From the NCBI RefSeq assembly GCF_024296665.1, contig NZ_CP100762.1, positions 1,116,001-1,180,000 on the forward strand: DNA of 64,000 nucleotides, given 5' to 3'. The notes under the pieces were generated by a model. It saw only the letters and a program-made list of their open reading frames with translations, was not told where the DNA came from and did no database searches. The DNA comes from Salinilacihabitans rarus (lineage in GTDB: Archaea > Halobacteriota > Halobacteria > Halobacteriales > Natrialbaceae). A program made the position numbers and the translations under genes. Each line of letters begins with the position of its first letter. Within the stretch, counting starts at the first letter, position 1. Of the stretch, positions 51,712-53,701 are shown piece by piece.

Positions 51712-51738
51712 TCAGTTCGTGCTCACGATCTTGATCAC
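51712..51738. repeat. 27-bp direct repeat, left copy (displaced ychF 3' end)
   Basis: A perfect 27-base match to 52523-52549, beginning TCAGTTCGTGCTCACG. It equals the complement of the last eight codons plus the stop codon of ychF, but here there is no ychF gene: it is an orphan copy 24 bases after the SDR stop. Bases on both sides differ between the two copies, so the match is exactly 27. Confidence 0.9.
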
Positions 51739-51747
51739 TACTTCTGA

Positions 51748-51764
51748 GTGCACACAGTGTACAC
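51748..51764. promoter_or_regulatory. Putative operator upstream of doc
   Basis: GTGCACACAGTGTACAC, an imperfect palindrome containing GTGTACAC, is followed at 51769-51776 by a TATA-like GGATAAAT. It lies about 80 bases before the doc ATG. Toxin-antitoxin operons are usually autoregulated through such palindromes; this role is inferred. Confidence 0.4.
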
Positions 51765-51840
51765 AACGGATAAATTCAGACAAAATCCGTGGACTGCAAT
51801 AGCAAGGATTACCTCGGATGCAGTCTGATCGAACGAACGA

Positions 51841-52335
51841 ATGGCAGACTCGTTCTGGTATCCGTCAGTGGGCGACATTCTCGCCATCCACGACGACATC
51901 GTATCAGAGTATTCTGACACGCACGCTGGCGTCCAGAATCGTGGCGATATCGAGTTTGCCCTGAACTACATCGAGAGTGGGAGTTTCGGAACGGTACCCG
52001 AGACGATCCACGAAAAAGCGTTTCACCTCATCCGGCTGTTGGTGGCAAACCACCCGTTCGTCGACGCAAACAAGCGTAAGCGTACTGCACTCAACACGAC
52101 GGTCGTGTTCTACGTTCTCAACGGGTATCGGTTCGCGTACGACAACGAAATCAGGACGATCCTCAAGCAGTTCGGCACCGATCAGGCAACCGTCGACGAA
52201 ACGGAAACTCTCGAATACCTTCGGTCTCACACCGAAGAAATCGACCTCCCAGGCGAGATTGAACAGTGGCGCGACGACCTCATCCAATACGGACTGAACG
52301 AACTGACCGACGGCTCGTCTAACCCGAACGGTTAA
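51841..52335 (+). CDS. doc: Death-on-curing (Doc/Fic) family toxin
   Basis: 164 residues with the Doc version of the Fic active site, HPFVDANKR at residues 71-79 (HxFxDANKR; His71, Asp75, Asn77, Lys78, Arg79). The N-terminal FWYPSVGDILAIHDDIVSEY and NRGDIEFALNYIE, which carries the conserved Asp-Ile region, fit family length (about 125-165). P1 Doc phosphorylates EF-Tu and arrests translation, and is neutralised by Phd, normally encoded upstream. No upstream antitoxin gene exists here: only 102 bases separate the left repeat from the ATG. A 46-residue ORF follows. Composition marks recent transfer. Confidence 0.85.
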   Translation: MADSFWYPSVGDILAIHDDIVSEYSDTHAGVQNRGDIEFALNYIESGSFGTVPETIHEKAFHLIRLLVANHPFVDANKRKRTALNTTVVFYVLNGYRFAYDNEIRTILKQFGTDQATVDETETLEYLRSHTEEIDLPGEIEQWRDDLIQYGLNELTDGSSNPNG

Positions 52336-52360
52336 CCGCAGTCGGGACAATACGACAAAT

Positions 52361-52501
52361 ATGGCGACCGAGGAAGGTTCTGAGTCCGGGTCTCCGCTCG
52401 ACGAAGTGATGGACGACATCCGACGGGAACTCGTCCAGCGGGTAGCAGCGGCTGACCGGGACGCGAATCGAGATATCTACGACGCGCTCGAAAACGAGTA
52501 A
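52361..52501 (+). CDS. 46-residue acidic helical ORF, candidate antitoxin
   Basis: ATG 52361 to TAA 52501, too short for most gene callers. The peptide is MATEEGSESGSPLDEVMDDI, continuing RRELVQRVAAADRDANRD and ending IYDALENE: a disordered acidic start and one long amphipathic helix. It begins 25 bases after the doc stop in the same direction and is inside the repeat-bounded cassette. The size, charge and position would suit an antitoxin or a small accessory peptide, but the order toxin-then-antitoxin is the reverse of phd-doc. No family was recognised. A perfect palindrome CGGTTAACCG (52329-52338) spans the doc stop just upstream. Confidence 0.5.
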   Translation: MATEEGSESGSPLDEVMDDIRRELVQRVAAADRDANRDIYDALENE

Positions 52502-52522
52502 CGCGCTCTAATTCCGGCTGTA

Positions 52523-52549
52523 TCAGTTCGTGCTCACGATCTTGATCAC
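52523..52549. repeat. 27-bp direct repeat, right copy (3' end of ychF)
   Basis: Identical to 51712-51738. It covers the ychF stop codon (TGA, read as TCA at 52523-52525) and the codons of the last eight residues, VIKIVSTN. This is the functional copy restoring the gene. Confidence 0.9.
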
Positions 52550-53701
52550 GTCGCCCTCGTCGAGTTCGTAGCCCTCGGCGACCTCCCGGTTCGACTTCGC
52601 GTCGACGGCGTGGAGGTAGCCGTCGCCGATGTCGGAGTGGACCGCGTAGGCGAGGTCGACCGGCGTCGACCCCGCGGGCAGCAGGAAGGCGTCGGGGAGG
52701 ACGTTGCCGCTGCCGTCGGACCACTTCGAGGCGTCCTCGACGGGGTAGGCCGTCAGGTGTGCGAGCAGGTCGTAGACCGCGTAGTTCAGCGCGGCCTGGA
52801 CGCCGGTGCCGTCCCAGCGTTCCATCGTCTCCGCGAGCGCCGAGAGCGCCCCGCGCTGGGCGTCGCTGACGTCGCCGGTGATCTCGACGGTCGCGTCGCC
52901 CGGATCGTAGTCGACGAGGCCGTTCTCGGCGGCCCGCCGGAGCGCGAGTTCGCCCTCCGCGGTCGTCGGGACCACGGGCTTGTCGAGGTCGAGGAGGCGC
53001 TCGACGTTCTCCTCGGGGGCGACGTCGATCTTGTTGGCGGCGACGACGATCGGTTTCGTCCGCCGGCGTACCTCGCGGGCGAGCACCTCGCGGTCCGCGT
53101 CGGTCCACTGGATGGGGTCGTCGGGGTACTCGAGGCCGCGCAGCGTCGCCGCCACGTCCGCGGGGGAGGCGCCGAAGCCGGTCAGCATGTCCGCGAGCGC
53201 GTCGTCCAGATCGAACTCCGGCGAGCGGGACTTGCGCTCGACGGACTCCCAGTTGCGCTCGACGATGCCCGCGAGCCACATGTCCATCTCCTCCTCGACG
53301 AAGTCGACGTCCTCGATCGGGTCGTGTTCGCCGGCCTCGACCGGTTCGCCCTTCTCGTTCGTCGCGCCGGAGGCGTCGATGACGTTGATTATCGCGTCCG
53401 CGTTCGTCAGTTCGTCGAGGAACTGGTTGCCCAGTCCCTTCCCCTCGTGGGCGCCGGGCACCAGCCCCGCGACGTCGAGCAGTTCGATCGGGACGTACCG
53501 CTTGCCGTCCCGACAGTGCTCGGAGTTACACCGCTCGTCGCGTTCGAGACAGGGACACTCCGTGCGGGCGTGGCTCACCCCCCGGTTGGCGTCGATGGTG
53601 GTGAACGGGTAGTTGGCGACGTCCACCTCGGCCATCGTCGCCGCAGTGTAGAAGGTGGACTTGCCGGCGTTTGGCTTGCCGGCAAGCGCGATCGAGAGCA
53701 T
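52523..53701 (-). CDS. ychF: YchF/OLA1-type translation-associated GTPase (archaeal)
   Basis: 392 residues. The Obg-family P-loop is MLSIALAGKPNAGKSTFYTA; switch II lies in LLDVAGLVPGAHEGKGLGNQ (with G2 residues in YPFTTIDANRG); the nucleotide-specificity motif is VVAANKID. The C-terminal TGS domain runs from about residue 310 and ends DEGDVIKIVSTN. A zinc-like insert (CPCLERDERCNSEHCRDGKR) between strands is typical of the archaeal subgroup. The protein likely binds ribosomes. ATG 53701 begins at the P-loop; the upstream frame is not conserved. Its last 27 bases are the integration site of the cassette. Confidence 0.92.
   Translation of the reverse strand: MLSIALAGKPNAGKSTFYTAATMAEVDVANYPFTTIDANRGVSHARTECPCLERDERCNSEHCRDGKRYVPIELLDVAGLVPGAHEGKGLGNQFLDELTNADAIINVIDASGATNEKGEPVEAGEHDPIEDVDFVEEEMDMWLAGIVERNWESVERKSRSPEFDLDDALADMLTGFGASPADVAATLRGLEYPDDPIQWTDADREVLAREVRRRTKPIVVAANKIDVAPEENVERLLDLDKPVVPTTAEGELALRRAAENGLVDYDPGDATVEITGDVSDAQRGALSALAETMERWDGTGVQAALNYAVYDLLAHLTAYPVEDASKWSDGSGNVLPDAFLLPAGSTPVDLAYAVHSDIGDGYLHAVDAKSNREVAEGYELDEGDVIKIVSTN

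What the first reader, a model, noticed from the sequence alone, without database searches (positions are those of the whole stretch)
51841..52501. Doc toxin without an upstream antitoxin; a 46-residue downstream ORF as the candidate partner
The Doc motif HPFVDANKR is complete, so an active toxin is expected and needs neutralising. Phd antitoxins normally precede doc, but only 102 bases separate the left repeat from the doc ATG. The only other ORF in the cassette is an acidic helical peptide encoded 25 bases after doc. This would be a reversed-order, very small antitoxin, or doc may be an orphan or have another function.
Basis: partly seen in the sequence, partly recalled or inferred. Interest (0 to 1): 0.7.

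Follow-up and report, generated by a model that had tools for sequence, protein, structure and literature searches.

The report
Haloarchaeal Doc toxin, reversed small antitoxin
A salt-loving archaeon carries a toxin gene followed, instead of preceded, by a tiny unannotated antitoxin gene; the same pair recurs in all of the roughly 140 related loci examined, and in this particular genome the toxin's active site looks damaged while the antidote is intact.

Summary
All 77 close haloarchaeal Doc homologues (392-genome sample) have the 46-aa ORF just downstream, 60 of them at the same 25-nt gap. All 61 more distant Doc records examined have a partner ending in the same [HRKN]xx[IV]YxxLxxE motif; controls were 0/48 for bacterial/viral Docs and 0.4% for random DNA. 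The ORF is under purifying selection (pN/pS 0.22; doc 0.24). In several genomes Doc and antitoxin are one polypeptide. Broken or lost docs often keep an intact antitoxin (28 loci); no intact doc lacks one. No Phd-family protein exists in the host genome or 40 relatives. The pair is one cassette type in arrays of short cassettes at the 3' end of ychF in Natrialbaceae. It is a new antitoxin variant of the known Phd-Doc/Fic kind: reversed order, no DNA-binding domain, not in Pfam, NCBIfam or PADLOC. Toxicity and neutralisation are untested.

The parts
51712..51738 (.). left copy of the 27-bp direct repeat (att-like core, duplicate of the ychF 3' end)
   Evidence: same core flanks cassettes in relatives
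51745..51766 (.). cassette-borne arm TGAGTnnACACAnnGTACACAA, 33 nt after the start of the core in array cassettes
51801..51814 (+). promoter-like element AGCAAGGATTACCT, 40 nt before the doc ATG; conserved at 38-41 nt in most close loci though the flanks differ
   Evidence: reading it as BRE/TATA of a leaderless or short-leader transcript is inference
51841..52335 (+). doc toxin gene, 164 aa
   Evidence: predicted fold matches P1 Doc
52051..52077 (+). Fic/Doc motif HPFVDANKR (His71 to Arg79)
52072..52083 (+). 6-nt tandem duplication AAGCGT-AAGCGT giving an extra Lys-Arg after the motif; unique to this copy
52361..52501 (+). 46-aa antitoxin ORF, C-terminal motif RDIYDALENE
52523..52549 (.). right copy of the repeat = 3' end of ychF
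52523..53701 (-). ychF (YchF-related GTPase), whose 3' end is the insertion site
   Evidence: NF007171 573.7 bits vs cut-off 387; start taken at the conserved Met

Best explanation
doc and the 46-aa ORF form a reversed-order (toxin first) type II toxin-antitoxin pair belonging to a haloarchaeal family in which a very small helical protein takes the place of Phd. Shown: conserved pairing, protein-level selection, fixed layout, natural fusion of the two proteins, toxin decay with antitoxin retention, and no Phd. Inferred: both genes are transcribed from the element 40 nt before doc; the antitoxin's C-terminal helices ([HRKN]xx[IV]YxxLxxE) dock on Doc and keep it from modifying its target, by analogy with P1 Doc the translation elongation factor; without an N-terminal DNA-binding domain the antitoxin cannot autoregulate as Phd does. 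In this genome the toxin is probably impaired by the Lys-Arg duplication in the catalytic loop (about 0.6 likely), leaving an intact antitoxin beside a weakened toxin, a state that recurs in relatives.
For: Pairing: 77/77 close docs have the ORF downstream, 60 at the identical distance. 61/61 more distant doc records have a partner ending in the motif, 60/61 with the strict pattern, against 0/48 bacterial/viral Docs and 0.4% of random window stretches. Coding: pN/pS 0.22 for the ORF, 0.24 for doc; codon-position variability 0.10/0.07/0.39. Gap: length kept at 25 nt while its sequence varies. Fusions: 217-aa ORFs in L195 and L196 join a whole Doc to a whole antitoxin; 168-169-aa Docs in L116, L124 and L198 end in the motif, with no separate gene in the next 200 nt of L116 and L124 (L198 runs off its contig). 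Decay: intact doc means intact antitoxin in 50/50 loci; broken or absent doc has 28 intact and 9 damaged antitoxins (three 'damaged' calls explained in the report). Many ORFs that look solitary carry a doc 3' remnant just upstream. No Phd/YefM (PF02604) in the own genome or 40 relatives, while 8 of 14 control genomes rang. Structure: the Doc model matches P1 Doc (3dd7, TM 0.86 by target). In a read-through chain of a homologous pair (L139) the antitoxin helices have pLDDT 94-95 and the chain pTM 0.83, with only the artificial linker disordered. Insertion: 0 of 42 homologues have it.
Against: No experiment shows toxicity or neutralisation. The genomes are related, so counts are not independent events. 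AlphaFold accommodates the window insertion in an extended helix, so inactivation of this copy is inferred only.
Confidence: 0.86

Rival explanations
1. doc is an orphan, or a non-toxin Fic-type enzyme, and the small ORF is an unrelated or spurious passenger.
For: This copy has an insertion in the catalytic loop; the ORF has no database family; the cassette carries no other partner.
Against: Universal pairing across different genomic sites, purifying selection, fusions and the one-sided decay pattern.
Confidence: 0.04
2. The small protein is not an antitoxin but an essential activator or subunit of a Doc-family enzyme with a housekeeping or defence role.
For: Strict co-occurrence and fusion fit any obligate complex.
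Against: The partner outlives the enzyme: 28 loci keep an intact small ORF with doc broken or gone, and no locus shows the reverse. An activator would be expected to decay with its enzyme. The pair is patchily distributed (200 of 392 genomes) and lies on plasmids too.
Confidence: 0.08
3. A canonical Phd upstream, or a Phd elsewhere in the genome, neutralises this Doc, and the small ORF plays a secondary role.
For: This is the usual Phd-Doc arrangement (established knowledge; no result here supports it).
Against: Only 102 nt lie between repeat and doc, filled by the att arm and a conserved promoter-like element. PF02604 has no match in the genome or 40 relatives with working positive controls.
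Confidence: 0.02

Closest known systems
Phd-Doc of bacteriophage P1 (3dd7, 3k33) and Enterococcus faecalis (9vzc; PMC13034048)
   Same: Doc toxin of the Fic fold; fold search and sequence profile both rank Doc structures first. In known complexes a C-terminal helix of the antitoxin inserts into Doc (PMC13034048), which fits a purely helical small antitoxin.
   Different: The antitoxin lies downstream, is 46 aa with no N-terminal DNA-binding domain, and has no detectable similarity to Phd.
Sulfolobales Phd-Doc, arCOG10132 (SiL_0730/SiL_0731, SMV1 gp44; PMC11065993)
   Same: Archaeal Doc neutralised by a small, non-classical protein; toxicity and rescue shown there by experiment.
   Different: That pair is convergent, not an operon; hhalign of A1 against gp44 gives probability 0.5%. 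No viral relatives of the haloarchaeal antitoxin were found.
Fic proteins with built-in or separate inhibitory helix (VbhT-VbhA, class III Fic)
   Same: Natural fusions put the inhibitory module at the C-terminus of the toxin, as in class III (own knowledge).
   Different: The inhibitory motif (S/T)xxxE(G/N) is absent from the window antitoxin (direct reading).
phd-doc gene cassettes of Vibrio superintegrons (Guerout 2013, cited in PMC11065993)
   Same: A Doc module as one cassette of an array, a likely array stabiliser.
   Different: The arrays here sit at the ychF 3' end with a core-plus-arm site; no integrase was seen beside them in most genomes checked.

Membership tests
Doc toxin (TIGR01550 / PF02661) | profile score above the curated cut-off and Doc fold | tested here: met
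Doc toxin (TIGR01550 / PF02661) | catalytic motif HxFx(D/E)(A/G)N(G/K)R | tested here: met
   HPFVDANKR, residues 71-79
Doc toxin (TIGR01550 / PF02661) | undisturbed catalytic loop-helix junction after the motif (needed for activity, not for family membership) | tested here: not met
   extra Lys-Arg in the window copy only; undisturbed in the homologues
Doc toxin (TIGR01550 / PF02661) | toxicity through modification of an elongation factor | not testable with these tools
   needs expression and kinase assays
canonical Phd-Doc module | antitoxin of the Phd/YefM family (PF02604) | tested here: not met
   no match for the ORF; none in the genome or 40 relatives
canonical Phd-Doc module | antitoxin gene upstream of doc | tested here: not met
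canonical Phd-Doc module | antitoxin with N-terminal DNA-binding domain | tested here: not met
   46 aa, no domain found; autoregulation itself not testable
canonical Phd-Doc module | C-terminal antitoxin helix bound to Doc | tested here: inconclusive
   confident docked model of a homologous pair, contacts not measurable
type II toxin-antitoxin module (general) | conserved two-gene unit of toxin and small partner protein | tested here: met
type II toxin-antitoxin module (general) | antitoxin protein neutralises the toxin | not testable with these tools
   indirect support from fusions and decay pattern
arCOG10132 archaeal Phd-like antitoxins | sequence homology to SMV1 gp44 / SiL_0730 | tested here: not met
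   hhalign probability 0.5%; only one member, gp44, compared
Fic class I/III inhibitor | (S/T)xxxE(G/N) inhibitory motif | tested here: not met
   absent from the window sequence by direct reading
integron | adjacent IntI integrase | tested here: not met
   nearest PF00589 match in the own genome is more than 400 kb away
integron | attC sites with their characteristic folding | not tested
   the repeat is the ychF 3' end plus an arm; folding was not compared with attC

The most novel reading that the evidence does not exclude
The Doc-antitoxin pair is one cassette type of an archaeal gene-cassette system independent of IntI: short, mostly single-gene units (191-1487 bp; HIT, cupin, GNAT, hydrolase, lipoprotein and small membrane proteins) are added one after another at the 3' end of ychF by a recombinase acting in trans on a 27-bp core plus 22-bp arm, and the toxin-antitoxin cassette stabilises the array as in superintegrons.
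Probability: 0.45. Interest if true: 0.85.

Novelty: new variant of a known kind. Interest (0 to 1): 0.6.

Why it matters
Doc-like proteins were found in about half of the haloarchaeal genomes sampled and are annotated as 'death-on-curing toxin', yet their antitoxin is unnamed or not annotated at all. This identifies a family-wide antitoxin of about 46 residues with a short motif and natural fusions that make the neutralising contact directly testable. It also supplies the partner that any functional study of these toxins needs.

Tried and rejected
Orphan doc: rejected by pairing data. Upstream or trans-acting Phd: none. Homology to the Sulfolobales/SMV1 antitoxin: none. Antitoxin in phages or viral contigs: none; viral Docs found are 26-38% identical and lack the motif partner. 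Structures related to the antitoxin by sequence: only chance hits. Structure of the natural fusion L196: three alignments (A3-A5) were misaligned by MAFFT and not used; the colinear A6 was used instead. Literature: no paper in the library holds 'haloarchaea', 'death-on-curing' and 'toxin-antitoxin' together, and no relevant paper joins haloarchaea with ychF.

Full report
What is there. doc occupies 51841-52335 (+) and encodes 164 aa with HPFVDANKR at residues 71-79; the 46-aa ORF is 52361-52501, 25 nt after the doc stop; a perfect 27-bp repeat lies at 51712-51738 and 52523-52549. The right copy is the 3' end of ychF (52523-53701, minus strand), so the cassette is inserted at the end of that gene and the left copy duplicates its last 27 nt. 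Doc scores above the curated cut-offs of TIGR01550 and PF02661, and its predicted structure (mean pLDDT 84, pTM 0.79) matches P1 Doc (3dd7, 3k33; TM-score 0.85-0.86 by target).

The small ORF is a real, selected gene. A genome-contig scan and a 392-genome search of the order gave doc homologues in 200 genomes. A profile of the ORF (A1) was then searched in the same genomes. Putting the two lists together, all 77 close docs (52% identity or more) have the ORF on the same strand directly downstream, or in a few cases joined to it, 60 of them at exactly the same distance. The 25-nt gap keeps its length although its sequence varies. Among 24 loci the ORF has pN/pS 0.22 and column variability 0.10/0.07/0.39 at codon positions 1/2/3, like doc (0.24). 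These loci lie in different flanking sequence, so common ancestry of one site does not explain the pairing.

More distant Docs have the same kind of partner. I examined 61 records of Docs 47-68% identical (one is very close to the main group and two cover one genome, so they are not all independent). Every one is followed by, or fused to, an ORF ending in [HRKN]xx[IVLMF][YFW]xx[LP], for example RRHAEIYAALENE, DEHEEIYDELATE and RDEHRDIYDALADE. A stricter pattern is met in 60 of 61, against 0 of 48 bacterial/viral Docs and 0.4% of random 420-nt window stretches.

Fusions. In L195 and L196 a whole Doc and a whole antitoxin form one 217-aa ORF. In L116, L124 and L198 a compact 168-169-aa Doc ends in the antitoxin motif; no further antitoxin follows in L116 and L124, and L198 ends at its contig edge. 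L197 is a degraded fusion. Gene fusion argues for direct interaction.

Decay is one-sided. Over deduplicated loci with a detectable antitoxin, intact doc goes with intact antitoxin in 47 cases. Three more were scored 'damaged' by the script but are artefacts: L027 has the longer 68-aa form, L197 is the fusion, and L199 starts one codon later. With doc broken or absent the antitoxin is intact in 28 and damaged in 9. doc is about 3.5 times longer, so more hits on doc are expected by size alone; even so, 0 of 28 one-sided losses on the antitoxin side has a probability of about 0.001 (0.78^28, my arithmetic, treating loci as independent, which they are not). Many apparently solitary ORFs carry a 3' remnant of doc just upstream.

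No Phd. PF02604 finds nothing in the window's genome or 40 relatives although 8 of 14 control genomes ring. The 102 nt before doc hold the att arm and a conserved promoter-like element (AGCAAGGATTAC), 38-41 nt before the ATG in most close loci.

This copy of the toxin. In the alignment of 43 Docs (A2) only the window sequence has two extra residues, Lys-Arg, directly after HPFVDANKR, from a 6-nt tandem duplication AAGCGTAAGCGT at 52072-52083. The insertion lies where the motif loop runs into the following helix; block pLDDT drops to 77 there. I infer probable impairment, not proof. Other ychF-site docs have stop codons or truncations with the antitoxin intact, so a weakened toxin beside a sound antitoxin would not be unusual.

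Mechanism. For a homologous pair (L139) doc and antitoxin are in one frame, and reading the two stops as residues gave a chain with 25 further alignment rows, 22 of them joined in the same way and three natural compact fusions (A6). AlphaFold gave pTM 0.83, antitoxin helices at pLDDT 94-95 and a disordered linker. In the E. faecalis complex the Phd C-terminal helix inserts into Doc without covering the motif (PMC13034048), while in Sulfolobales an Asp of the antitoxin is modelled on Lys81/Arg82 of the motif (PMC11065993). Either mode could apply here.

Comparison. The antitoxin is not Phd (order, size, family), does not match the arCOG10132 member SMV1 gp44 (gp44 taken as the 44th annotated CDS of the record), and lacks the (S/T)xxxE(G/N) Fic inhibitory motif. 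Makarova et al. 2009 (PMC2701414) list AbrB, Phd and YhfG partners for Fic/Doc and found no archaea-specific system; a small gene in a conserved pair with a known toxin was their own criterion for a new antitoxin. I found no paper describing this pair. Plasmid records label the ORF 'hypothetical protein' or leave it out. I therefore call it a new variant of a known kind.

Context. In Natrialbaceae the pair is often one of several units at the ychF 3' end. Forty units of 191-1487 bp were measured; most start with the 27-bp core followed at +33 by TGAGTnnACACAnnGTACACAA, and most carry one small gene. The extended site occurs in 30 of 125 family genomes. Integrase-family genes are far from the array in most of nine genomes checked, about 11 and 15 kb away in two. 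How the units move is open.

Noticed in passing
window 51712-52549; L091-L106, L207-L213: Arrays of short, mostly single-gene cassettes at the 3' end of ychF, most starting with a 27-bp core and a 22-bp arm at +33; cargo includes HIT, cupin, GNAT, alpha/beta hydrolase, lipoproteins, small membrane proteins and Doc-antitoxin. No integrase beside most arrays.
   Followed up: partly
L205 (G252:C1:1541500-1546000), core at 2289 in the oriented locus: Core plus arm site with no ychF within the 4.5-kb locus; the ychF of that genome is about 180 kb away (L206) with its core on the other strand, possibly an inversion through the array.
   Followed up: no
L037, L024, L155, L159, L162, L171, L172: Antitoxin ORFs without a usable doc at or near ychF, some beside a second complete pair; they could act as anti-addiction genes.
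   Followed up: partly
L092 4503-4694 (oriented locus): A 191-bp unit between two identical cores that holds only the promoter-like region and the first codons of doc: a deletion remnant or duplicated end.
   Followed up: no
L195 (217-aa fused ORF): The fused Doc has HPSVDANKR, with Ser in place of the motif Phe, so this fused toxin may be inactive while L196 keeps HPFVDANKR.
   Followed up: no
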